Source: Corynebacterium tuberculostearicum (GTDB lineage: Bacteria; Actinomycetota; Actinomycetes; Mycobacteriales; Mycobacteriaceae). From it: a stretch of DNA of 64,000 nucleotides. A program made the translations under genes and the position numbers. This document shows, one piece after another, positions 773 through 58,029 of the stretch (position 1 is its first letter; each line of letters starts with the position of its first letter). Where the stretch lies: positions 1,054,001 to 1,118,000 of the forward strand of contig NZ_CP073096.1 in the NCBI RefSeq assembly GCF_030503735.1. The letters are read 5' to 3'. A model generated the notes under the pieces. That model searched no databases, was not told where the DNA came from, and was given only the letters and a program-made list of their open reading frames with translations.

Positions 773-867
773 TGGCGGAGACGGACAGGAATCGAACCTG
801 CCAGACCGAGATGCTCGGCCTCACCGGTTTTGAAGACCGGGGCGCCCACCAGGACACGTACGCCTCC
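773..867 (-). tRNA. selC: tRNA-Sec (anticodon UCA)
   Basis: The reverse strand folds into a long tRNA of 95 nt with an encoded CCA end (773-775), an 8-bp style acceptor stem starting GGAGGCG, a long variable arm (GGCCGAGCATCTCGGTC), a T-arm with GGTTCGATTCC, and anticodon TCA (831-833 on the plus strand). These are the features of bacterial selenocysteine tRNA, which is charged with serine and converted by SelA. It sits between selA (same strand) and selD (divergent). Confidence 0.97.
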
Positions 868-48395: not shown

Positions 48396-48430
48396 GTGCC
48401 CCCAGTGGGACTCGAACCCACACTGAATCG
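48396..48430. repeat. attL: 35-bp duplicate of the tRNA 3' half
   Basis: These 35 bases match 57955-57989 exactly, starting GTGCCCCCAGTGGGAC and ending CACACTGAATCG; both flanks differ. The copy holds the T-arm and acceptor strand of the tRNA but not the anticodon arm. It marks the left end of the integrated element. Confidence 0.95.
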
Positions 48431-48545
48431 TTCTAAAATCTAAGTCATAGGCTACTTTTCTGGCGGTTAATATTCCTATTGTTGCAGGTAGGAAGTTTAC
48501 CTATTCCGGATAGAGTTAAGCTTTTCGACTATTTCTTACTATTTT

Positions 48546-48563
48546 TTGGACACTTTTTGGACA
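48546..48563. repeat. 18-bp repeat near attL (possible integrase arm site)
   Basis: ttggacactttttggaca occurs here and at 57891-57908 near attR. Each copy contains TTGGACA twice. Here it overlaps what was the 3' end of the integrase gene. Confidence 0.65.
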
Positions 48564-48638
48564 CCAGGACCTGACCCCTTTTTGGTGGACACCTGATATC
48601 CAGCCCGGTTGGGCTGGGAAGAAAGGTAATCTACCACC

Positions 48639-48938
48639 ATGTCCAGGTATTCCGAACAGTTCAAACGCGATGCCGTGGCCCTCTATGAAAACAATGAGGA
48701 CCTCTCGTTGAACTCAGCATCAGCGGAGCTCGGTATTAATCGAGCCTCGCTGCATTCTTGGGTCAAAAAGTACGGCACCGGCAAACGTGCCCGCATTAAA
48801 GCCGTGCATGATAAAGCCCAAGCGACGAATGATTCTGAGCGAATCCGCCAGCTGGAAAAAGAGAACGCGAAGCTGCGCGAAGAACGCGATATCCTGCGCA
48901 AGGCCGCGAAATATTTTGCCGAAGAGACACGCTGGTGA
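48639..48938 (+). CDS. IS3-family transposase OrfA
   Basis: The 99-residue protein has an HTH (YSEQFKRDAVALYENNEDLS and SASAELGINRASLHSWVKKY) followed by a leucine-zipper-like coiled coil (IRQLEKENAKLREERDILRK), the standard OrfA layout. ATG at 48639 follows GAAAGG. The stop overlaps the OrfB start (GTGA). Confidence 0.95.
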   Translation: MSRYSEQFKRDAVALYENNEDLSLNSASAELGINRASLHSWVKKYGTGKRARIKAVHDKAQATNDSERIRQLEKENAKLREERDILRKAAKYFAEETRW

Positions 48939-49831
48939 TCCGCTTCCAGTTTGTCTATGACCACCGAACCGAGTACTCGGTTAAGCGGATGTGCCACGTT
49001 TTAAAGCTGAATCGTTCCTCGTTCTATAAATGGGTCAGCACCCGTAAAAAGCGCAGGTTAAAGATGTATTCCGATGCCCTTATTGGTGCAAGAATTACAA
49101 CCATCTTTGATGATGAGAACGGGCTTTATGGTGCTAAACGCATCGCCGCAAGCCTCAAGGAAGACCCAGCGTATACCCCGGTCAATCATAAGAAGGTTGC
49201 ACGCATCATGAAAAACATGGGGCTAAAAGGCTTTAGCAAACGGCGTCGATGCATCACCACCAGGCGCAAGCCTGGTCACCGTGTCATGCCAGATCTAGTA
49301 GGCCGTACATTCACAGCTGACGAGCCGAACCGTGTGTATGTCGGCGACATTACCTACCTGCCGTGTAAGGGTGGCAAGAACATGTATTTGGCTACAGTCA
49401 TTGACACCTATTCACGGAAACTTGCAGGTTATGCACTCGCAGACCACATGCGTGTCTCGTTGGTCATTGATGCTCTAGCCCACGCACATGGTGTGCGTGG
49501 AAGTCTTGACGGGGCCATTTTTCATTCCGATCACGGCAGCGTGTACACCTCACAAGCGTTTAGAAAATACTGCTCGTCGCTGGGTGTACGCCAATCCATG
49601 GGCGCGGTAGGAACGAGTGCCGATAATGCCCTGGCAGAGTCATTTAACGCCACCCTAAAACGTGAAGTGCTGCGTGATCGGAAAATCTTTGACAATCCGA
49701 TAACCTGCCGGCAGGAAGTCTTCCGGTGGTGCATGCGCTACAACACGCGCCGGCGACACTCGTGGTGTAACCTTCTAGCTCCCGATGACTTCGAAGCACT
49801 CGCATCAGCTACACTGACCAAAGCAGCATAG
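48935..49831 (+). CDS. IS3-family transposase OrfB (DDE integrase)
   Basis: The 298-residue protein has the HTH_21 region (GLYGAKRIAASLKEDP) and an rve integrase core with the DDE triad: Asp in VYVGDITYLPC, Asp in AIFHSDHGSVYTS, and Glu in SADNALAESFNATLKREV, with the D-35-E spacing. In many IS3 elements OrfAB is made by frameshifting; here the overlap GTGA also permits coupled translation. All catalytic residues are present, so the element may be active. Confidence 0.95.
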   Translation: MIRFQFVYDHRTEYSVKRMCHVLKLNRSSFYKWVSTRKKRRLKMYSDALIGARITTIFDDENGLYGAKRIAASLKEDPAYTPVNHKKVARIMKNMGLKGFSKRRRCITTRRKPGHRVMPDLVGRTFTADEPNRVYVGDITYLPCKGGKNMYLATVIDTYSRKLAGYALADHMRVSLVIDALAHAHGVRGSLDGAIFHSDHGSVYTSQAFRKYCSSLGVRQSMGAVGTSADNALAESFNATLKREVLRDRKIFDNPITCRQEVFRWCMRYNTRRRHSWCNLLAPDDFEALASATLTKAA

Positions 49832-50982
49832 CTAACCCCCCGACGTGTCCACTTTCCGGGGGTCAGGCCCCCATCTAGCGCTGCATTCACTAAATCGCCA
49901 ATGGGGACACCATTGTCATTGCGTTGGACGTAAACACGCTCCGTCAACAAGCTAGACGAATGCCCCAAAACCTCCGCCGCCTTCGCCGGGCCTAATTCGT
50001 CATAGACGATAGTCCCAAGGGTCTTTCTAAGGGTGTGTATCGTCACCCAGCTAAATTCTTCGCCGCGCCACTGCCTAAGCCAACGGTTGAAATTGTTCTC
50101 CCAAAGATACGTCCCCGCCCCGGACGGGAACACCATCTCTAAGACTCCGTACTTTTCTTTTCGACGCTGCAGAATCTCAACACACATTCGGGACAACTGG
50201 ATCGGGCGGGCCGCGTTAACAGTCTTTCCTCCGTCTTGTCGAATCAGTCCAGTGTCTTTCGAGTAGACCATTGATCCACTTACCCGAAGAATTGGCGGCT
50301 CAACTTCTAAGTTAATGTCACTCCACCTAATCCCCAGTACTTCGCCGGCGCGCAGGCCGGTAGCTAAGCTAACATCCACGACGTCCTGGAGTGTCTCGTT
50401 CCCAGACTTAGCAATCTGCGCTCGAAACCTTGGAATTTCTTCCAGCGTTAACGCTCGGACTTCTTTTTGCTCAACGGTGACCGGTTCGACTACTTGCATA
50501 GGGTCGGACGGAATCAACCCGTATCTTGCCGCCATTTTGAAAGCGCCCTTCAACACGGTTCGCACATTAGGGGCAACGCCCGAAGGCAGGGCCTGGAGCC
50601 AACTATTCAAGTAAGACGGAGTGACTTCCCGAATACGCATCTCCCCGAAGGCGGGGACAATATGACGGTCAATTGAATTACGGTAACGGTCACGCGACTG
50701 GGGGCGAACCTTCTTCTTCGTCTCCAACCAGTGCTCCATCAAATCAGAAACTGGACTCGTCGTTGTAAGAACTTCAGAATCCGAAGCCCCTAACTTCTCT
50801 GTGCATTTCGCCTTAACAGCGTTGACGGAGCCGGATTTTGAATTGCCCCGTGCTCGGACACGTACTGTTTCACCGTTCCATAGGCGAAGCCGCGTGGAAG
50901 ACTGCCACTTCCCGGACTCCAACTGTTTGGAAGATATTTCGCCCCACGTTCCCAGTGGCGTAGCCGGCCTACCGCGAGCCAT
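49738..50982 (-). CDS. Tyrosine recombinase (integrase), C-terminal tail replaced by IS3 sequence
   Basis: The phage-type integrase has an N-terminal arm-binding and core-binding region and the catalytic residues: Arg in ATGLRAGEVLGIRWSD, HTLRKTLGTIV (His-x-x-Arg), LGHSSSLLTERVYVQ with the nucleophile Tyr. Native sequence ends at VPIGDLVNAALDG; the next 30 or so residues come from the IS3 element. Joining across the IS restores a tail GPGVQKVSKK and a stop at 48539-48541. I chose ATG at 50982 (MARGRPATPLG); it overlaps the repressor end by 14 bases. It should catalyse integration at the tRNA site. Confidence 0.9.
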   Translation of the reverse strand: MARGRPATPLGTWGEISSKQLESGKWQSSTRLRLWNGETVRVRARGNSKSGSVNAVKAKCTEKLGASDSEVLTTTSPVSDLMEHWLETKKKVRPQSRDRYRNSIDRHIVPAFGEMRIREVTPSYLNSWLQALPSGVAPNVRTVLKGAFKMAARYGLIPSDPMQVVEPVTVEQKEVRALTLEEIPRFRAQIAKSGNETLQDVVDVSLATGLRAGEVLGIRWSDINLEVEPPILRVSGSMVYSKDTGLIRQDGGKTVNAARPIQLSRMCVEILQRRKEKYGVLEMVFPSGAGTYLWENNFNRWLRQWRGEEFSWVTIHTLRKTLGTIVYDELGPAKAAEVLGHSSSLLTERVYVQRNDNGVPIGDLVNAALDGGLTPGKWTRRGVSYAALVSVADASASKSSGARRLHHECRRRVL

Positions 50983-51502
50983 CGCCACGCGTCGTTTCTT
51001 CGAATTCCCAGGAGTCGCCGAGCTTCGACTCCAGCTTTCGCGCATCTTCCACGAATGCTGAATCATGCTTCAAGAGAGCGCGGAAAGAGCTATGCGACGA
51101 CCGAGTAATTGCTTGTAGTTCCTCACTGTCATCACTTTCCGGCACATAGTCCTCGCGATACTTTCCCGTGCAAACTTCATGCCAAGCCGTCCATGCCCCC
51201 AACTCCAGTCTGAGCGAGTAGCGACGGGAGTGATAAGTCTTCAAGTCAGCTTGGATTTCGGTATACGAATGACCGATTGGAGCTTCGATGAAGGCGTCGA
51301 GAGGGACTTCGAAGAAGTTGGCAAAGTGCATCGCCTCATTGACCTTCATGGGTTGCTCCCCTTCCTCAATGCGCCTTAGCGAAGTCGAATGGAGAGTTAG
51401 ACCATTCTTTTCTTTGATTCCGTCAATTAGTGCCTGCCTGGACATGTTGGCTGCTGTGCGCAGTGCTTTTAGGTTCATCGCAGCATAAGAGTCGTTTGTC
51501 AT
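50969..51502 (-). CDS. XRE-family repressor of the integrated element
   Basis: A 177-residue protein. The N-terminal HTH (residues 10-65) reads LKALRTAANMSRQALIDGIK, then LTLHSTSLRRIEEGEQPMKVNEAM, as in Cro/CI-type repressors. The C-terminal part (AWTAWHEVCTGKYREDYVP) has no known dimerisation or peptidase motif. ATG at 51502 is preceded by GGAAAGG. The integrase gene overlaps its 3' end, so both are one transcript. It is divergent from the AlpA-like and replication genes, the usual lysogeny switch arrangement. Confidence 0.88.
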   Translation of the reverse strand: MTNDSYAAMNLKALRTAANMSRQALIDGIKEKNGLTLHSTSLRRIEEGEQPMKVNEAMHFANFFEVPLDAFIEAPIGHSYTEIQADLKTYHSRRYSLRLELGAWTAWHEVCTGKYREDYVPESDDSEELQAITRSSHSSFRALLKHDSAFVEDARKLESKLGDSWEFEETTRGDGSR

Positions 51503-51532
51503 CGAGATATACCTTTCCAAGTAGTATCGAAT

Positions 51533-51612
51533 TGTGTTGCACATCCTGACATGTGGTGCTAGTGTCATATTGTGTAACACAGTTTGATAGTTCATTTCAT
51601 TCTGTGTTGACA
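51533..51612. promoter_or_regulatory. Divergent control region with three related operator-like sites
   Basis: TGTGTTGCACA (51533-51543), TGTGTAACACA (51571-51581, a perfect palindrome) and TGTGTTGACA (51603-51612) lie between the repressor and the AlpA-like gene. The third overlaps a TTGACA -35-like box of the rightward promoter. They are probably repressor operators. Confidence 0.65.
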
Positions 51613-51643
51613 TCTTAACCGCTACTGACACTAGGAGATCGAA

Positions 51644-51883
51644 ATGGACATACTTCCTCCATCTCTTTCCGTATCCCAAGCACTTCTATTCCTCGGAAAC
51701 GTAAGCAAGAGCACGTTCTACGCTTCGATCCGAAACGACACGTTCCCGTCCCGAGTGCTTCGCATCAACAACCGCATCGTCATCCCCACAATGCCCCTCC
51801 TTGAAGCTGTTGGTATGCCCGCAGATAAGGCTCTCGAAATGCTCAACCAAGCTGTTACCAACACCGAGAAGGAGGTGGCGTAG
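51644..51883 (+). CDS. AlpA/excisionase-like HTH protein
   Basis: The 79-residue protein has the MerR-like helix-turn-helix of excisionases and AlpA regulators: LSVSQALLFLGNVSKSTFYASIR followed by FPSRVLRINNRIVIP. Such proteins act as directionality factors or activators of element genes. ATG is preceded by CTAGGAGATCGAA. It is the first gene of the rightward operon, divergent from the repressor. Confidence 0.82.
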   Translation: MDILPPSLSVSQALLFLGNVSKSTFYASIRNDTFPSRVLRINNRIVIPTMPLLEAVGMPADKALEMLNQAVTNTEKEVA

Positions 51884-52255
51884 GTGATGAAGCAGTACCT
51901 AGCCCAGGACTCGCTGGCGTATCTCGCTGATAGCGTGCTCGCTTCGCTCGACGCCGCTAACGCAGAGATTCAGGACATCAACGGTCGTTGCCCGGAGTTC
52001 GACGAGCTACCGGAGAACCTGCAGAACGCTATCTACATCCTCGACGGCATCCGCGAAGCAGTCCGCAAAGAAGCCATGCACCACAACGTGCACCGCGCCA
52101 CTCACTACAGCAATGGTCTTCCGGTTCGTCTGCATTACAAGGGCGAAGTCGTTACGGACCCCGAAGGCATGAGCTACCGGCCGGACAACATCGCCACGAT
52201 GCACCCCGGTGGCACGCCAGACGCTGTAATCCCACCCCAAGACAACGCCGCATAA
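51884..52255 (+). CDS. Hypothetical protein of the satellite element
   Basis: The 123-residue protein has a helical N-terminal half (SLAYLADSVLASLDAANAEI, ELPENLQNAIYILDGIREAV) and a more extended C-terminal half. GTG at 51884 is eight bases from GGAGG; ATG at 51887 is an alternative. It abuts the AlpA-like gene stop (TAGGTG) and is in the same operon. I recognise no family. Confidence 0.7.
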   Translation: MMKQYLAQDSLAYLADSVLASLDAANAEIQDINGRCPEFDELPENLQNAIYILDGIREAVRKEAMHHNVHRATHYSNGLPVRLHYKGEVVTDPEGMSYRPDNIATMHPGGTPDAVIPPQDNAA

Positions 52256-52265
52256 GGAGAAGAAA

Positions 52266-52817
52266 TTGACCACCCCTAATAAGAAAACCCTCGCAGGTGC
52301 TGGGAACACCAACGAGGGAGCAGGCGAGACTGGTAAAGGCTCGTACACCCGTAATCATAGCAGCCGTGAACTTCGCCGCGCTATCGGCAAGATTCAGGCC
52401 GCTATCTCCAACAACAACCGGGCCCTTCGCCAAATCAACGAGAAATCACTCAACGCCACCCCGGCCGAGTTCCAGGACCTCGACGCGAAATTCGGAGAAG
52501 TTCAGAAAGCTAACACTGTCCTGACTAAGCAGCTCCGTTCCCTTGTCGAGGAACACCACCAATTGATGCAACAGAAGCGTGATGCAGCCAAGCAGCACGA
52601 GGAAGAAAAAGCCCGCCACGATGCCCGCAGGCGCGAAGAAATCACTCGCATCACGGGCCATTCTGATTGGTCACCTATGGACCTGAAATACATGCTCGTT
52701 GAGCGCTACCGCGAAGGCGGCGACTACATGACCGTCCTCGACGCAATGAAGGCCATTGACGACCTCGACCTACAGCGCGCAGGTCTTACTTCTTGGGGAG
52801 AAAGTGTTGACGAATGA
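52266..52817 (+). CDS. Coiled-coil hypothetical protein of the satellite element
   Basis: The 183-residue protein starts at TTG 52266, seven bases after AAGGAG. Its middle part is a long charged coiled coil (AIGKIQAAISNNNRALRQIN, then QKANTVLTKQLRSLVEEHHQ and KQHEEEKARHDARRREEI). The C-terminus is MDLKYMLVERYREGGDYMTV. It overlaps the next small ORF by ATGA. A structural role such as scaffold or adaptor is possible but not shown. Confidence 0.7.
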   Translation: MTTPNKKTLAGAGNTNEGAGETGKGSYTRNHSSRELRRAIGKIQAAISNNNRALRQINEKSLNATPAEFQDLDAKFGEVQKANTVLTKQLRSLVEEHHQLMQQKRDAAKQHEEEKARHDARRREEITRITGHSDWSPMDLKYMLVERYREGGDYMTVLDAMKAIDDLDLQRAGLTSWGESVDE

Positions 52818-52906
52818 TTGCAACTGACCTTCTCGACCAGGCCGACGCCCTTCTCGTTGCTGACGCTATGGACCTACTCGACAACCTTGACTTTATTGCC
52901 GATTAG
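52814..52906 (+). CDS. Tiny ORF (30 residues) translationally coupled to the coiled-coil gene
   Basis: ATG overlaps the preceding stop (ATGA). The product MIATDLLDQADALLVADAMD and ten further residues is acidic and amphipathic. Short coupled ORFs are common in phage operons. No family is recognised. Confidence 0.5.
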   Translation: MIATDLLDQADALLVADAMDLLDNLDFIAD

Positions 52907-52932
52907 TCACCGGCTAGCCCGACTGGCAGGCA

Positions 52933-53004
52933 CCCGGTTTCGAGCACCGGGCGGGCACGAACCGTACACATGCGGAACCCCGCCGAGTGGGCACCTCGAC
53001 GGGG
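52933..53004 (+). other. Two hairpins upstream of the replication gene
   Basis: CCCGGT-N7-ACCGGG (52933-52951) and CCCCG ... CGGGG enclosing CGAGTGGGCACCTCG (52978-53004) lie in the 124-base gap before the replication gene. They may control its expression or form part of an origin. No clear gene is present. Confidence 0.4.
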
Positions 53005-53030
53005 TAATGCGGGAGGAAGGATTTTCCTAA

Positions 53031-55142
53031 ATGCCAGAATACAACACCGCCCGAACATCATTCGAGCGTGTAATCGAAGCCGTAGAAGAAGCTGGCCTTC
53101 ACATCACCTACAGGAGTAGCACGCAGGCAAGTTTCCAGACACCCGGCCATTCGGCAAACGACCGGGGCACCTCCATTACCTACAACGGCAAGCAAACACT
53201 CATCTACTGCCACAACGGAGAGACCGACGACGTCCTCGACGCCCTGGGGCTCACCGCCCGTGACCTCTTCGACGAGGAGACCGGGGCACGCTATGACTAC
53301 GGCGATGGCCGTATTGTATGCCGAGACCCTGCAAAGGTATTCAAGCAACTAGGTAACACGAAGGGCTCTAACCTTTACGGACTCGACAGCCTATCCAACG
53401 ACGGGCCGGTCTACGTCGTCGAAGGTGAAAAAGACGCAGACACTGCCGCGCATGTCTGGCACGCTGCCGCCGTGACACAGGCCCAGGGTGCCAGCACAGG
53501 CCCGGAACGAGCCGACTGGGCACCCATCGCCGACCGCGACGTCATCATCATCGCCGACAACGACGAACCCGGCCGCAAACGCGCCGACAAAGTCTTCACC
53601 TACCTCACCGGAATGTCACCTCGCCCGAAGTCGATCATCATCAAGGCCGCGAAAGAAGGCAAGGACTTATCCGACCACATCGCGGCCGGCCATACCGACG
53701 ACGAGCTCGTCGACCAGGGCATCAAAATAACCCGCCGCCGTGTGAAGCTCACCCCGGCGACGCGCATCAAGACCGAAACCATCGAGTGGGTTATCGACCA
53801 GTGGATCCCCGCCGGAATGCTCACGCTACTCGCCGGCCGTGAAGGCATCGGCAAGTCGACCATCGCGTGCGACTGGGTTTCCATGTTGAGCAAGAAGGGC
53901 GTGAAGTGCGCCTACCTCAATTCCGAAGACTCCCGTTCCTACACCGTGAAACCACGCTTGCAAGCCGCTGGTGCGAACCTCGACAACGTCTTTTTTATCG
54001 ACGTGGAAACCGAAACCGGAAACGAGGGGCACCTCAAACTTCCGCAGGACACCAACCTTCTCTTCGACGAGCTCAATAACCAGGGCGTGAAGTTCGTTGT
54101 CCTCGACGCGGCGAAATCTTCGATGGATCCGAAGCTCGACGGTTACAAGGACGACCACGTCCGCCAATTCCTCGAGCCCCTCGCCGCCGCTGCAGACCGC
54201 TACGGCATCACCGTCGTCGGCCTCGCGCACTTCGGCAAGGCCGAGGGGAAAGACACTGGCAAACTACTTCTAGGCTCCATTGCATGGTCTCAAATTGCCC
54301 GCAGCGTGTTGTCTGCTGCAATGGACGACGACGGCCGACTCATTGTCTCGAACACGAAGGCAAACCTCGCACGTGGCATTGTCTCGCGTGAAGCGCACCT
54401 TGTTTCACGCCCCGTCAAACTTAGCGACGGCACCCTTACCGAATTGGGTGCCATCGAGTGGGGAGAGTTCACCGACACCGTCGCGACCGAGCTACTCGAC
54501 CGCCAGGCCGACGAAGACGCCGACGACCGCACCGATGCGGAAATCTGGCTAACGGACTACCTCACAGAGCGCGGCCCAACACCACGCGCCGAAGTACTCA
54601 AGGCTGCGGCCAAAGCGAGCGTTGCTTCAGAGCGCACTATCAAGCGAGCGTTCAAAACGCTTAATGGAATTTCCGAGTCTCAAGGCTTCCCTCGAGTAGC
54701 TACGTGGTCACTTCCCAGTGGGGACAGTCGGGACAAGACCACCCTACACACAAATAAGAGTGGCCCAACTGGCCCAACTGGCGATGACCTGCAGAAACAG
54801 AGTGGCCCAACTGGGGAAGAAATGCAGTTGGGCCACGGGTTAAAGAGTGGCCCAACTGGGCAACTTTTCCAGTTGGATCACCCTCAAGAAAGTGAGCCAA
54901 CTGAACAAATTTCGCGCCAAGCTCCTCGACCAGGACGCGTGACCAACGAGACTCGCGCCGCCGTCCTCGACGCGCTCTACGACCAATTCGGACAATCCCC
55001 CGCCGTCGTTAAAGGCTCACTCACTCAAGACCAGATCGCCGAAATTGGCGACCTCGACAACTACCTCAACACCCTTGTCGACGACGGGCTCATCGCCCGC
55101 GACAACAAAGGCAAGTACCTCAAACTCAAGGAGACCGCATGA
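53031..55142 (+). CDS. Replication protein: TOPRIM domain fused to RepA-like AAA ATPase/helicase
   Basis: The 703-residue protein combines a primase-like N-terminal part, a TOPRIM domain (YVVEGEKDADTAA with Glu131; VIIIADNDEPG with Asp176/178), and an AAA/RecA-type ATPase (Walker A AGREGIGKST at 268-277; Walker B VKFVVLDAAKSS near 360). Then comes a long C-terminal region with winged-helix-like segments (VLKAAAKASVASERTIKRAF) and a linker of SGPTG repeats at about 575-610. It likely starts replication of the excised element. ATG follows GGGAGGAAGGATTTTCCTAA. Repeats in the DNA of the linker look like iterons (see findings). It overlaps the next gene by ATGA. Confidence 0.9.
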   Translation: MPEYNTARTSFERVIEAVEEAGLHITYRSSTQASFQTPGHSANDRGTSITYNGKQTLIYCHNGETDDVLDALGLTARDLFDEETGARYDYGDGRIVCRDPAKVFKQLGNTKGSNLYGLDSLSNDGPVYVVEGEKDADTAAHVWHAAAVTQAQGASTGPERADWAPIADRDVIIIADNDEPGRKRADKVFTYLTGMSPRPKSIIIKAAKEGKDLSDHIAAGHTDDELVDQGIKITRRRVKLTPATRIKTETIEWVIDQWIPAGMLTLLAGREGIGKSTIACDWVSMLSKKGVKCAYLNSEDSRSYTVKPRLQAAGANLDNVFFIDVETETGNEGHLKLPQDTNLLFDELNNQGVKFVVLDAAKSSMDPKLDGYKDDHVRQFLEPLAAAADRYGITVVGLAHFGKAEGKDTGKLLLGSIAWSQIARSVLSAAMDDDGRLIVSNTKANLARGIVSREAHLVSRPVKLSDGTLTELGAIEWGEFTDTVATELLDRQADEDADDRTDAEIWLTDYLTERGPTPRAEVLKAAAKASVASERTIKRAFKTLNGISESQGFPRVATWSLPSGDSRDKTTLHTNKSGPTGPTGDDLQKQSGPTGEEMQLGHGLKSGPTGQLFQLDHPQESEPTEQISRQAPRPGRVTNETRAAVLDALYDQFGQSPAVVKGSLTQDQIAEIGDLDNYLNTLVDDGLIARDNKGKYLKLKETA
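54757..54903. repeat. Iteron-like repeats inside the replication gene
   Basis: agagtggcccaactgg occurs at 54757, 54799 and 54844. CCCAACTGG follows the first copy directly, inverted partial copies lie at 54825-54836 (CAGTTGGGCCAC) and 54869-54876 (CCAGTTGG), and a diverged copy lies at 54891. Directly and inversely repeated short motifs of this type are typical of Rep-binding origins. Confidence 0.7.
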
Positions 55143-55336
55143 AAACCCCTCGTCCGTTCCGCCGTGTACGACTTTCAACGCTTAGTGACAATGGCGATAC
55201 TCTCGCTGTGCGTATGCGCCGCGACGCCCAACGCCCTAACCGTATTTTCGTTGAATTCCCCAAGTGTGCACTCATGACTGAACAACAGGCCATCGACCTC
55301 GCCAATGCTATCGCCGACACCATTGAGGAAGAGTAG
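55139..55336 (+). CDS. Small hypothetical protein of the satellite element
   Basis: A 65-residue basic/helical protein coupled to the replication gene by ATGA. It ends RIFVEFPKCALMTEQQAIDL, then ANAIADTIEEE, similar to the end of the following small protein, so the two seem to be paralogues. Function unknown. Confidence 0.68.
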   Translation: MKTPRPFRRVRLSTLSDNGDTLAVRMRRDAQRPNRIFVEFPKCALMTEQQAIDLANAIADTIEEE

Positions 55337-55342
55337 AACGCC

Positions 55343-55519
55343 ATGCCGAAACCGAAAATCCGCAGACTCAACGGTAAGCGTTTCACGTTCAAAATTGAAC
55401 GCGACAAGTTCGACCCGGAGCGCATTTTCTGTATCTTCCCGTGGGGTTACCTCTCAATCACTGAAGCTGAATCACTGCGTTTAGCAAACGCGTTCTACCG
55501 GGCGGCTGTAGATGGGTAG
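55343..55519 (+). CDS. Small hypothetical protein, paralogue of the preceding ORF
   Basis: The ATG at 55343 starts 58 residues: MPKPKIRRLNGKRFTFKIER, then RIFCIFPWGYLSITEAESLR and LANAFYRAAVDG. The segment RIFxxFPxxxLxxTExxxxxLANAxxxA is shared with the 55139 protein. It is short but in a gap-free operon and follows six bases after the previous stop. Confidence 0.65.
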   Translation: MPKPKIRRLNGKRFTFKIERDKFDPERIFCIFPWGYLSITEAESLRLANAFYRAAVDG

Positions 55520-55611
55520 AGCCACGCCCTAGACGTGAACACATCCACGCTGGTAGAATGGTCAATATAGGGCGTCGTCCCTATTCCCTACCCCTAGAAG
55601 AAAGGAAAATC

Positions 55612-55917
55612 ATGAAACAGGTATTCCCCTGTCATGAGGATCGGTCACCATTGACCGAAGAAGAAATCGCAGCGGGCCGCGAGAATCTTGGCCGCCAAAT
55701 TGAAGATGCACGCGATGAAATCACCAAGCTAGAAAAGAAGCTCTACTGGGCACGCCGCAAGCGTGACGCCATCATCCGTGGCTACATCGGAGCCTACGAC
55801 GGCACCATCGCCGACGCCGCAAAGCTCGCAAGCCTAGACCGCAGCTCCATCTCCAAAATTCTCTACCCCAACGCAAAAACTATTGCCCGTCGACTCAACC
55901 CCAAGGCAGGTGCCTAA
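55612..55917 (+). CDS. Small helical protein with an HTH-like C-terminus
   Basis: The 101-residue protein starts at ATG 55612, preceded by AAAGGAAAATC. A coiled coil (NLGRQIEDARDEITKLEKKL) is followed by a possible HTH (TIADAAKLASLDRSSISKIL) and a basic end. It could be a regulator of the capsid genes that follow two bases after its stop, or a small assembly factor. The frame is open to 55558, but those residues have no ribosome site. Confidence 0.65.
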   Translation: MKQVFPCHEDRSPLTEEEIAAGRENLGRQIEDARDEITKLEKKLYWARRKRDAIIRGYIGAYDGTIADAAKLASLDRSSISKILYPNAKTIARRLNPKAGA

Positions 55918-55919
55918 CA

Positions 55920-56807
55920 ATGTCCAGTTTCTATCCAAGCCCTAATCCGATATCCGTACTTACGAACGTTCCTGGCATCTCGATCGACATGTTCGTCGGT
56001 GGTGACAGTGAAGCGCTCATCAGTAACGAGATTGCAGCGCGCACCGAAAACGCGCTCATTCGCACCATCTTCCGCGATTCGGAACAACTCGCAACCGGCG
56101 GCCTGTACTACAACCAACTGTCGAATGAACAGATCAAGTCCATCGGCGAAGCTGCTGAACGGCAGCCCGGCGAAGAGTTCGCACTCGTGTTTCAGCCTGA
56201 ATCGAAGGCACTTGTTGAACGCGTCCACCAGTTCGGAGCAAAGTCTCAAATTACCTACGAAGCTATCCGCCGCAACAACGTTGACGAAATGACCCGCCTC
56301 GTAGACTTCCTATCTCTGACAATCCTGCGCAAGCTAGACGCCTACGTCATGGATATCCTGACTAAGGCTGTCAACGCCGGCATTACCGCCAAGGCTGATT
56401 CTCCGGCACTGTCTACTGCCATTGGCCGCGATACGCCCATCGCAGGCACCAGCCTTGGGCACCTCATCAACGCCATCGCCCAGGGGGCCGACAATGACCT
56501 TGCAGTCGACTATGACACTCTCGTGCTTAACCCTGTTCCCGCATCGCAGCTAAAGATTCAGGAAAAGGTAACCGGCATCTCCCTCGCCGAGGACTTCGGA
56601 GTCAATGTTGTCACCTCGCGTGAGTTCGGCCCCGACATGGGCTACCTCGTCGACACCACCCGTGCGGGCGAAGTCTACTGGGAAGACCCTCTTACTAACG
56701 AAGTGATTGACGATAAAAGCCGCCACATCTACGACATTCAAGCGTGGGCAACCCCGGCTGCAGCAATCACCACCCCGCACGCCATCAACATGATCAGCTT
56801 CAACTAG
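55920..56807 (+). CDS. HK97-fold-type major capsid protein
   Basis: The 295-residue protein resembles actinophage major capsid proteins. After an N-arm comes a helical region with the spine-helix-like EMTRLVDFLSLTILRKLDAYVMDILTKA. Then there is a central strand DYDTLVLNPVPASQL and the C-terminal GYLVDTTRAGEVYWEDPLTN with IYDIQAWATPAAAITTPHAI, typical of the last beta strands of the A and P domains. There is no scaffold or protease gene before it, and the N-terminus has no obvious long delta domain. The decoration-type gene follows at 13 bases, preceded by AGGAGG. The capsid call rests on recognised segment patterns, not on a database hit. Confidence 0.8.
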   Translation: MSSFYPSPNPISVLTNVPGISIDMFVGGDSEALISNEIAARTENALIRTIFRDSEQLATGGLYYNQLSNEQIKSIGEAAERQPGEEFALVFQPESKALVERVHQFGAKSQITYEAIRRNNVDEMTRLVDFLSLTILRKLDAYVMDILTKAVNAGITAKADSPALSTAIGRDTPIAGTSLGHLINAIAQGADNDLAVDYDTLVLNPVPASQLKIQEKVTGISLAEDFGVNVVTSREFGPDMGYLVDTTRAGEVYWEDPLTNEVIDDKSRHIYDIQAWATPAAAITTPHAINMISFN

Positions 56808-56820
56808 GAGGTCCAATACC

Positions 56821-57198
56821 ATGTTCGACAATCAAACCTATGACCGCTTCGCCCCGGCCGACGACATAACTGCACATGCCGCCGCAGCGGTAAAGGGCCG
56901 GCACTTCGTCGCCTTCACCGGAGAAGAGACCGACGGCCACGCCCAGGTCGTGCCCGCCACTGCAGGCAGCTACCCGGCCGGGGTCGCCGCCTATGACGCC
57001 ACCGAAGGCAACCTCGTAGGGCTCAAGCGCGGCAACCGTGTCATCACCGTTGCAGCATCCTCCGATATTCCATCCGGCACCGCAGTCGAAGTGGGAGAAG
57101 ATGGAACCGTCATGGCGCACACGTCCGGTCAAATCGTCGGCACAGTCTACGCAAAGGGAGACATCGCCGGAACCGTACTGGTTGCCATCAACCTTTAA
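56821..57198 (+). CDS. Capsid decoration/cement-type protein
   Basis: The 125-residue beta-rich protein resembles the DUF2190-like/head decoration proteins found beside capsid genes: AGVAAYDATEGNLVGLKRGN, ITVAASSDIPSGTAVEVGED and GQIVGTVYAKGDIAGTVLVAI. These small barrels sit on capsid surfaces and stabilise them. ATG follows AGGAGGTCCAATACC, the strongest ribosome site in the element, which fits a structural protein. It is the last gene before the attachment site. Confidence 0.75.
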   Translation: MFDNQTYDRFAPADDITAHAAAAVKGRHFVAFTGEETDGHAQVVPATAGSYPAGVAAYDATEGNLVGLKRGNRVITVAASSDIPSGTAVEVGEDGTVMAHTSGQIVGTVYAKGDIAGTVLVAINL

Positions 57199-57954
57199 GG
57201 TCACCATGCGGTAACCTATAAGTAATACTCACGGTGCTACCTCTTTTGTTTCCTCATTTGGGCTACGTATCCACGTGGCCCATTTGTGGTTTTCGCCCCG
57301 TCAACCCCAATGTGGCACGTAGGCTCGAGATATGGGGCTGGGCTGCACCTCTTATCGCCCTTAACCCCGCAACCTAGACCTCAAGGCAGGCGAACAGTTG
57401 GCGATCCTCTAGGCCAGGGGGTGGCTAAAAAATCTGGCGACCTCCCTCCCTGACACCGCCCCGTCCGCATGCAGTCAGGGATTCTCTCTCTGGGGCGTAA
57501 GGGGGGGTCGTGCGCGTATAGAGAGGTATACCGGTAACTTTTTGGCACCCTGAAGAAAAGCCTGATAGCCAGGCCGAGCGAAGTCTGAGCAGAAAGACCG
57601 GGATAAAATGACCATCCCTGAGAGATTGTCACCTTGTTTTCCCTGTTCAATTTTGCCGTTTAAGGCGATGAACTTTCGTTCGGGTATGCCAGTCCCCTTC
57701 AACTGCTTAAACGGACGTGAGGGCGTCATTAGTGGCAGATTCGCCACTAACCTCGGGTACTGGTGCAGTCCATGGGACACGGCAGGAGAAGAGTAACTCT
57801 ACTCCTACTAATCGCACCCAGCCCGGCCTGCTTTCCCGTCTCGAACGAGACCACCCCGACCTGGTGCTGCAGGTCAGGGCGGATTTTTATTTGGACACTT
57901 TTTGGACAGTTTTCGCTGTCTTGTCACTATTTCCCAGCGTTTCCGCTGGTAGTA
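57199..57954. other. Structured non-coding right end of the satellite element
   Basis: About 755 bases with no convincing gene. It contains CCCTGAC ... GTCAGGG (57448-57480), GTATA-GAGAGG-TATAC after a G-run (57501-57531), CCGTTTAAG ... CTTAAACGG (57656-57714), TTAGTGGC-AGATTC-GCCACTAA (57729-57750), and two hairpins next to the tRNA (57905-57920, 57934-57949). Open frames here have no ribosome sites or protein-like composition. Packaging, attachment-arm or small-RNA functions are possible. Confidence 0.6.
57891..57908. repeat. 18-bp repeat near attR (possible integrase arm site)
   Basis: An identical copy of ttggacactttttggaca at 48546-48563. It lies about 47 bases inside attR. Confidence 0.65.
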
Positions 57955-57989
57955 GTGCCCCCAGTGGGACTCGAACCCACACTGAATCG
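57955..57989. repeat. attR: 35-bp repeat within the intact tRNA gene
   Basis: It matches 48396-48430 exactly and covers the T-arm and 3' acceptor strand of the complete tRNA. The element therefore restores the 3' half of the tRNA on integration. Confidence 0.95.
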
Positions 57990-58029
57990 ATTTTAAGTCG
58001 ACTGCCTCTGCCGATTGGGCTATGGGGGC
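57956..58029 (-). tRNA. tRNA with UAA anticodon, tRNA-Leu(UAA) with short variable arm
   Basis: The minus strand folds as a class I tRNA of 74 nt. The acceptor is GCCCCCA/TGGGGGC with discriminator A, and the D-arm is GCC ... GGC. The anticodon arm is GTCGA-CTTAAAA-TCGAT, giving anticodon TAA after U33. The variable region is about five bases and the T-arm is GTGGG-TTCGAGT-CCCAC. CCA is not encoded. The anticodon reads UUA (Leu), although leucine tRNAs usually have a long variable arm. It is the integration site of the element. Confidence 0.88.

What the first reader, a model, noticed from the sequence alone, without database searches (positions are those of the whole stretch)
48396..57989. 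Small tRNA-integrated satellite with a capsid and decoration gene pair but no other virion genes
Seen: integrase, XRE repressor, AlpA-like protein, TOPRIM/AAA replication protein and, as the only virion-type genes, an HK97-type capsid protein and a decoration-type protein, all within 8.3 kb after removing the IS. There is no terminase, portal, protease, scaffold, tail or lysis gene. Known: capsid-forming PICIs carry whole head and packaging modules, while other satellites redirect the helper capsid. Inference: this element is a third layout that supplies only the shell and cement proteins and borrows portal, terminase and tail from a helper, perhaps to set capsid size or to poison helper assembly. 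It could be an undescribed class of corynebacterial satellite.
Basis: partly seen in the sequence, partly recalled or inferred. Interest (0 to 1): 0.92.

Follow-up and report, generated by a model that had tools for sequence, protein, structure and literature searches.

The report
Corynebacterium satellite making its own shell
A small piece of mobile DNA in a Corynebacterium chromosome carries genes for a virus-type shell but none that we could recognise for a portal, DNA-packing motor or tail; it belongs to a family of similar 8-11 kb elements that probably build their own shell and borrow the rest of the particle from a helper phage.

Summary
An element with an exact 35-bp repeat at both ends sits in a tRNA-Leu gene; a related species has the same site empty. 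It is 9,559 bp with an IS3 copy, about 8.25 kb without. It encodes integrase, repressor, primase/helicase, an HK97-fold capsid protein and a cement protein. No terminase, portal, protease, scaffold or tail gene was recognised.

It is not a deletion remnant. With 18 comparable elements it makes 19: 16 in 15 of 242 Corynebacterium genomes, 3 in other genera of the family. Fifteen of 19 have att repeats at both ends. None of 1,741 ORFs matches terminase or portal profiles that find these genes in 16 and 17 of 18 phage loci. Fourteen of 19 also carry a head protease plus scaffold; the window and two others have only capsid and cement. Satellite capsids fall on one side of one tree branch.

Best reading: satellites that make their own small procapsid and take portal, terminase and tail from a helper; the window is a reduced form. 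Borrowing is inferred. Known relatives in layout: cf-PICIs and mycobacterial capsid-bearing PICI candidates (phiRv1/2, phiBN42_1).

The parts
48396..48430 (.). left att repeat (35 bp, exact copy of the tRNA-Leu 3' end)
   Evidence: empty site in L090
48545..48563 (.). left copy of a 19-bp direct repeat, probable integrase arm-type site
   Evidence: arm-site role inferred; comparable repeats just inside the att sites of L025, L027, L029, L033, L038, L047
48567..49871 (+). IS3-family insertion sequence (orfA 48639-48938, orfB 48935-49831), at the 3' end of the integrase gene
49738..51066 (-). tyrosine integrase; last codons lie inside the IS; Phage_integrase profile matched to position 170 of 172
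50969..51679 (-). XRE-type repressor (true start uncertain; 50969-51604 was scanned)
   Evidence: phrog_3 5e-5
51644..51883 (+). AlpA/excisionase-like HTH protein
   Evidence: HTH_17 E 0.02 (weak); blastp relatives in L035, L031
51884..52255 (+). 123-aa protein, 86% identical in the C. minutissimum element (L034)
   Evidence: dN/dS 0.19
52266..52817 (+). 183-aa coiled-coil-like protein, 59% identical in L034
53031..55142 (+). TOPRIM/AAA replication protein (primase/helicase)
   Evidence: relatives in L034, L025, L026, L031, L032
55139..55519 (+). two small ORFs of 65 and 58 aa, function unknown
55558..55917 (+). 119-aa protein, coiled-coil and HTH-like by eye, in the slot held by the HTH gene c11 in other elements (no profile match to c11)
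55920..56807 (+). HK97-fold major capsid protein, 295 aa
56821..57198 (+). cement/decoration protein, 125 aa
57199..57889 (.). stretch with no recognisable gene; holds a scaffold or protease-scaffold gene in most relatives; possible site of ori or packaging signal (inferred)
57890..57908 (.). right copy of the 19-bp direct repeat
57955..57989 (.). right att repeat within tRNA-Leu(taa) 57955-58029 (-)

Best explanation
The element is a phage satellite of a capsid-making lineage of Corynebacterium and related genera. It integrates at a tRNA (shown by att repeats and an empty site), replicates with its own primase/helicase (inferred from domains), and on helper infection makes its own HK97-type shell and cement (inferred from conserved intact genes). 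In most relatives its own protease and scaffold complete a procapsid. It then takes portal, terminase, connector and tail from the helper (inferred from their absence in every member examined). The shell is probably small, so that an 8-11 kb genome fits and the helper genome does not. The window copy is a reduced form that would also need a scaffold, and any protease, from the helper.
For: Att repeats at both ends in 15 of 19 elements, 14 of them at recognised Ser, Val, Thr, Lys, Leu, Ala or Arg tRNA genes, spacing 9.4-11.2 kb. Empty site. No terminase or portal match at E < 0.1 among 1,741 ORFs of 19 elements, while the same kind of profiles find a terminase in 16 and a portal in 17 of 18 phage loci (the profiles were built from these loci). 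Capsid-cement block kept while replication modules change: TOPRIM/AAA, D5-type, Prim-Pol, initiator. Protease and scaffold come together: 14 have both (10 with the phrog_3894-type protease, 4 ClpP-type), 5 have neither. Satellite capsids on one side of a branch, 99/98, and 82/99 with 16 more viral rows. Purifying selection, L031/L033 dN/dS: capsid 0.06, cement 0.10, scaffold 0.20. The phages nearest in the first tree (L069, L072) have terminase and portal.
Against: No helper, induction or particle is known. Own genome shows no phrog_9 terminase (the family rings in 4 of 14 control genomes), so no resident helper of that type. The window copy lacks scaffold and protease and carries an IS at the integrase 3' end, so it may be decaying. 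The tree program flags long branches for the window clade and for L047/L148, so their placing may be false, and only 78% of bootstrap trees keep the split in the larger set. Four phage-labelled rows (L041, L043, L160, L168) show neither terminase nor portal in the DNA held; L041 is not cut short by a contig end, so a capsid-bearing locus without them also exists among phage-type capsids. L071 and L073 have no recognisable cement (L073 is on a short contig). L026, L028, L032 and L073 lack a found att pair. L025/L026 capsid dN/dS is 0.37 at low divergence. The capsid was not found in the one other genome of the species, whose contig ends at the att.
Confidence: 0.6

Rival explanations
1. Interference: the capsid and cement proteins are made to mix with or poison the helper's capsid, forcing small or dead heads, while the satellite DNA is packed in a mixed or helper-made shell.
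For: The reduced members (window, L047, L148) have shell and cement but no recognised scaffold or protease, so a shell of their own is hard to build without helper parts. Size redirection by other satellites is established (P4, SaPI; passage of PMC10690885).
Against: 14 of 19 members carry a protease and scaffold, which poisoning would not need. Capsid under strong purifying selection between L031 and L033.
Confidence: 0.17
2. The window copy is a decaying member of a real satellite family: it has lost its scaffold/protease gene and its integrase tail, and no longer moves. (This can be true together with the best explanation for the family.)
For: IS at the end of the integrase; about 690 bp without a gene where most relatives have the scaffold; closest replication-module relative L034 has the protease-scaffold.
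Against: Two further elements with att repeats at both ends (L047, L148) have the same short layout with a different capsid clade. The window capsid has a 96% identical relative counted in 21 member sequences on 16 contigs. The integrase profile is matched to 170 of 172 positions.
Confidence: 0.25
3. A deletion remnant of a full prophage.
For: The genes are of phage origin and full phages of the genus have related capsids.
Against: Comparable gene sets between att repeats in 15 of 19 elements at several tRNA genes; capsids apart from those of phages; no portal or terminase match.
Confidence: 0.04
4. The element codes for its own packaging parts, unrecognised because they are too diverged or too small.
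For: Several ORFs have no match. The HTH gene c11 next to the capsid hits a small-terminase family weakly (phrog_57).
Against: The ORFs over 250 aa that were scanned are integrase, primase, capsid, protease-scaffold, repressor, transposase or without match; portals and large terminases of the phages seen have about 410-610 aa.
Confidence: 0.07
5. A domesticated protein compartment (encapsulin-like) carried on an island.
For: Encapsulins are among the best structural matches.
Against: A phage capsid family profile matches above cut-off; a cement gene and an integrase accompany the capsid, and protease and scaffold genes do so in most relatives.
Confidence: 0.02

Closest known systems
Capsid-forming PICIs (cf-PICIs)
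   Same: Satellites with their own capsid gene that take the tail from a helper (definition from a passage of PMC10690885)
   Different: cf-PICIs code for portal, connectors, HNH and both terminase subunits; portal and terminase were not found here
Mycobacterial candidate PICIs, including phiRv1 (9.3 kb), phiRv2 (10.8 kb) and phiBN42_1
   Same: Integrated elements with integrase and capsid; phiBN42_1 has integrase, excisionase, primase, prohead protease and capsid (passages of PMC10654092 and PMC3986857). PMC10654092 says induction by phages has not been demonstrated
   Different: Sequence relation to the present family not tested here; some mycobacterial ones carry portal and terminase (phiBN44_1, phiMCAN_1); no shell-plus-cement subset described in the passages read
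Streptomyces Mulch/Flayer satellites
   Same: Actinobacterial satellites with their own capsid genes; capsids of about 43 nm reported (passages of PMC10690885)
   Different: They carry terminase and portal, lack recognised primases and parasitise virulent phages
Head module of Gordonia phages such as Nettuno
   Same: ClpP-type protease-scaffold (37% identical to the L050 protein), cement-type protein and capsid of related families
   Different: Preceded by small terminase, large terminase and portal, with the cement-type gene before the capsid; in most satellites the scaffold follows capsid and cement and the rest is missing

Membership tests
Phage satellite (PICI-like integrative element) | Small element with integrase, repressor and replication gene between att repeats, no tail or lysis genes | tested here: met
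   lysis genes only through the family scans
Phage satellite (PICI-like integrative element) | Induced and packaged by a helper phage | not testable with these tools
   no particle or induction data; no phrog_9 terminase in own genome
cf-PICI | Own major capsid protein | tested here: met
cf-PICI | Own head protease | tested here: not met
   not found in the window; present in 14 of 19 elements
cf-PICI | Own portal and head-tail connectors | tested here: not met
   no portal, adaptor or stopper match in 1,741 ORFs of 19 elements; the stopper profile recognises only 1 of 18 phage loci, so that part is weak
cf-PICI | Own large and small terminase | tested here: not met
   weak phrog_57 hits through HTH genes such as c11; the small-terminase profile recognises only 3 of 18 phage loci
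cf-PICI | HNH nuclease | tested here: inconclusive
   window ORF 52266-52817 hits an HNH family only at E 0.07; not among the 25 commonest families; no dedicated search
Mycobacterial candidate PICI | Integrase plus major capsid protein in a phage-like region without a full prophage (criterion of PMC10654092) | tested here: met
Mycobacterial candidate PICI | Shared ancestry with phiRv1/phiRv2 | not tested
   no sequence of those elements was compared
Corynebacterial capsid-satellite family described here | Capsid within the satellite capsid group | tested here: met
   long branch noted
Corynebacterial capsid-satellite family described here | Cement gene beside the capsid | tested here: met
   17 of 19 elements, window included
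Corynebacterial capsid-satellite family described here | Protease and scaffold genes (common, not universal) | tested here: not met
   14 of 19 have both; the window, L047, L148, L071 and L073 (short contig) have neither
Intact prophage | Packaging, tail and lysis genes | tested here: not met
Encapsulin | Cargo protein with targeting peptide next to the shell gene | not tested
   a phage capsid family matches instead

The most novel reading that the evidence does not exclude
An old, separate class of satellites in Corynebacterium and sister genera whose strategy is to replace only the shell of the helper: they make their own capsid, cement and usually protease and scaffold, and graft helper portal, terminase and tail onto it. 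The minimal members would show that swapping the capsid and cement proteins alone is enough to redirect head size and packaging.
Probability: 0.4. Interest if true: 0.8.

Novelty: new variant of a known kind. Interest (0 to 1): 0.62.

Why it matters
Known satellites either redirect the helper's shell or bring a whole head and packaging set. A lineage that brings the shell but no portal or motor would lie between the two, and would show that the portal vertex can be exchanged between different head systems. It gives named, fetchable examples (C. minutissimum ATCC 23348, C. hylobatis YIM 101343, Corynebacterium sp. Marseille-P4321) in which an open question, what capsid-bearing 10-kb prophage-like elements of actinobacteria are for, can be tested outside M. 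tuberculosis.

Tried and rejected
Deletion remnant: rejected for the family (15 of 19 with att pairs, no portal or terminase match, capsids apart from phage ones). Encapsulin: rejected on family profiles. A scaffold hidden in the window: a profile of 13 scaffold C-terminal parts gave only E 9.1, to the capsid ORF itself; the 183-aa protein was considered, but its homologue sits in L034, which has its own scaffold. Close capsid relatives by scan with A1: none in genome contigs or viral contigs; other alignments did find loci. Phylum search with A1: the own genome plus one weak hit in 396 genomes. Nucleotide search in plasmids and phages: none. Anti-phage defence genes: a PADLOC scan of 137 satellite ORFs gave 21 families; not followed. 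A resident helper: only the phrog_9 family was sought.

Rows dropped or unexamined: phage_L076 (long branch) was left out of the second tree. Of 34 Corynebacterium genomes with a capsid match (own included), 15 hold satellites, 12 hold only loci set down as phage type (G193 uncertain), and 7 (G071, G108, G121, G138, G178, G205, G222) were not examined; G120 holds one of each. Of 13 genomes matched in the order search (own included), 8 places were fetched and 4 genomes (G307, G413, G453, G598) and a second place in G569 were not; L074 is unclassified. Of 23 viral-contig loci, 15 were drawn as maps and 17 put in the tree. L030 is the same place as L048.

Limits: the PHROG and Pfam scans of 137 ORFs show only the 25 commonest of 100 and 28 families. 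Single terminase profiles found 6, 6 and 10 and portal profiles 7, 7 and 10 of 18 phage loci, together 16 and 17 of 18; they were built from these same loci, so a very diverged gene could be missed. Element ends of L026, L028, L032 were set by eye for the ORF count. L027 and L034 give weak hits (4e-6, 6e-5) to the phrog_3894-type protease besides their ClpP-type one.
Full report
What is there. Between two exact 35-bp repeats at 48396-48430 and 57955-57989 lies a 9,559-bp element; the right repeat is the 3' part of tRNA-Leu(taa). In a related species (G106, L090) right flank, one copy of the 35 bp and left flank follow each other, at about 85.6% identity on both sides. Two other species appear to have other inserts at this site (L091; G043 with a second att copy 3.2 kb away), so it looks like an integration hotspot. 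An IS3-family copy (48567-49871, 1,305 bp) sits at the end of the integrase gene; by subtraction the element is about 8.25 kb without it.

Gene content. Integrase, a repressor, a weakly AlpA-like protein, two proteins without a clear family, a TOPRIM/AAA primase-helicase, small ORFs, a capsid protein and a cement protein. The capsid protein exceeds the NCBIfam cut-off for a major capsid protein (149.9 against 120 bits). Its model, weak over most of residues 1-97 but better in 101-295, has 267 PDB matches at E <= 0.001; the 50 listed are phage capsids, encapsulin-type shells and an engineered nanocage. The cement model matches the phi29 head-fibre base, chains of the Haloferax tailed virus 1 capsid structure and the TW1 capsid/stabilising-protein entry. 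No other virion gene was recognised.

A family, not a remnant. Relatives of the capsid were found in 22 of 242 Corynebacterium genomes with the window protein and in 34 of 242 with a profile of 16 capsids, own genome included. Of these 34, 15 hold satellites (16 elements, the window included), 12 hold only loci set down as phage type (one, G193, uncertain), and 7 were not examined. In the order search 13 of 397 genomes matched, own included; among the 8 places fetched, three more elements (L070, L071, L073) lie in other genera of the family. Of the 19 elements, 15 have direct repeats of 24-51 bp at both ends, 14 of them at a recognised tRNA gene (Ser, Val, Thr, Lys, Leu, Ala, Arg), with spacing of 9.4 to 11.2 kb. 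The exceptions are L026, L028, L032 and the contig-limited L073. L028 has a serine recombinase at its other end, 47% identical to one in the IMG/VR contig L156, which itself holds capsid, cement and scaffold. Named hosts are C. minutissimum ATCC 23348, Corynebacterium sp. Marseille-P4321 and C. hylobatis YIM 101343.

What the family shares. Replication modules differ between members (TOPRIM/AAA, D5-type helicase, Prim-Pol, initiator). The block around the capsid is kept. By profile search over all ORFs of at least 40 aa: cement in 17 of 19; scaffold in 14 of 19; a head protease in the same 14 (10 of the phrog_3894 N-terminal type, 4 of ClpP type); neither in the window, L047, L148, L071 and L073. 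In the first type the two parts of one phage protein family (phrog_3894: residues 5-152 and about 244-438 of 458) are split, the protease part lying before the capsid and the scaffold part after the cement (in L070 the cement precedes the capsid). All 14 satellite scaffolds end in WVR (one followed by S; L156 too), while three homologous phage or phage-like proteins looked at (Nettuno, L069, L076) do not. The HTH gene c11 lies before the capsid in 17 of 19 elements; it resembles excisionases and, weakly, a small-terminase family. Its role is open.

What the family lacks. Profiles seeded from three terminases and three portals found 6, 6, 10 and 7, 7, 10 of 18 phage loci singly, 16 and 17 of 18 together, and nothing at E < 0.1 in 1,741 ORFs of 19 elements. 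Adaptor (15 of 18 phage loci), small-terminase (3), stopper, tail-terminator and major-tail profiles (1 each) also found nothing there; all but the adaptor are weak tests. Other ORFs over 250 aa that were scanned are replication proteins or have no match.

Descent. In a tree of 44 capsids, all 19 satellite rows and the 6 metagenome relatives of the window capsid fall on one side of a branch (99/98) from all 19 phage-labelled rows. With 16 more viral rows, and L076 left out, the split remains with lower support (82/99, 78% of 200 bootstrap trees). The program warns that the window clade and L047/L148 are long branches whose joining may be false. Of the phage-labelled rows, L041, L043, L160 and L168 show neither terminase nor portal in the DNA held; the last three are cut by contig ends or lie on short contigs, L041 is not. 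The phage rows nearest in the first tree, L069 and L072, carry large terminase and portal. Between L031 and L033 dN/dS is 0.06 for capsid, 0.10 for cement, 0.20 for scaffold and 0.10 for integrase; between the two copies in one genome (L025/L026) it is 0.37 for capsid at low divergence. The shell genes are therefore in use at least in the L031/L033 lineage.

How it most likely works. Shown: integration at a tRNA, conserved shell genes, no recognisable packaging or tail genes. Inferred: on helper infection the satellite replicates, makes its own shell and takes portal, terminase and tail from the helper; genome length suggests a small shell. The window form, with shell and cement only, would also need helper scaffold. 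The same short layout with a different capsid clade (L047, L148) speaks for a working form, but decay of the window copy is not excluded. No helper was identified; the own genome has no phrog_9 terminase.

Comparison. By the definition in PMC10690885 (passages) cf-PICIs carry portal, connectors and terminase; this family fails the portal and terminase tests. Mycobacterial candidate PICIs are defined by integrase plus capsid, include phiRv1/phiRv2, and some have terminase or scaffold genes (PMC10654092, passages); phiBN42_1 has integrase, excisionase, primase, prohead protease and capsid (PMC3986857, passages). So the general layout is on record; sequence kinship with the present family was not tested. 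PMC10023795 (passages) says only that smaller actinobacterial elements could be satellites. Searches of the open-access library listed no report of corynebacterial capsid-bearing satellites by title, abstract start or the passages read; three of them listed only part of what matched (25 of 6,653, 15 of 21, 12 of 17), and most subscription papers are not held.

Verdict. Real, recurrent, and a new variant of a known kind; the mechanism is plausible but unproven.

Noticed in passing
window 773-867: tRNA-Sec gene (ARAGORN; Rfam RF01852), pointing to selenoprotein machinery in this Corynebacterium.
   Followed up: no
window 48567-49871 and G000:C1 2129992-2146989, G000:C4: The IS3-family element has six further near-identical full-length copies in the genome, four of them within about 17 kb.
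   Followed up: no
G181:C15 start; L091; G043:C1 880762-884438: The tRNA-Leu att site looks like a hotspot: other small inserts seem present in two species, and the contig of the one other genome of this species ends at the att.
   Followed up: partly
L025-L036, L038, L048, L070, L156 scaffold proteins: Satellite scaffold proteins end in a conserved WVR tail; three phage or phage-like homologues looked at continue differently. It may be a docking peptide for capsid or helper portal.
   Followed up: partly
L027, L031, L033, L035, L038, L047, L048, L070, L071, L073, L148: WhiB-like ORFs lie upstream of the capsid block in 11 of 19 satellites.
   Followed up: no
window 54720-54900 (inside the primase gene): The primase protein has a run of repeated SGPTG-type peptides between its ATPase part and C-terminal part.
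   Followed up: no
L041 / L154 (G193): Capsid, cement and scaffold of phage type with no terminase or portal recognised in the stretches fetched, beside a protein matching phrog_3895 (ADP-ribosyltransferase) and weakly a head protease family; not classified.
   Followed up: partly
L071 (G624): A second, 28-bp copy of the att core lies about 5.8 kb past the satellite's right end, with further integrase pieces: probably a tandem array of integrative elements at one tRNA-Ser.
   Followed up: no
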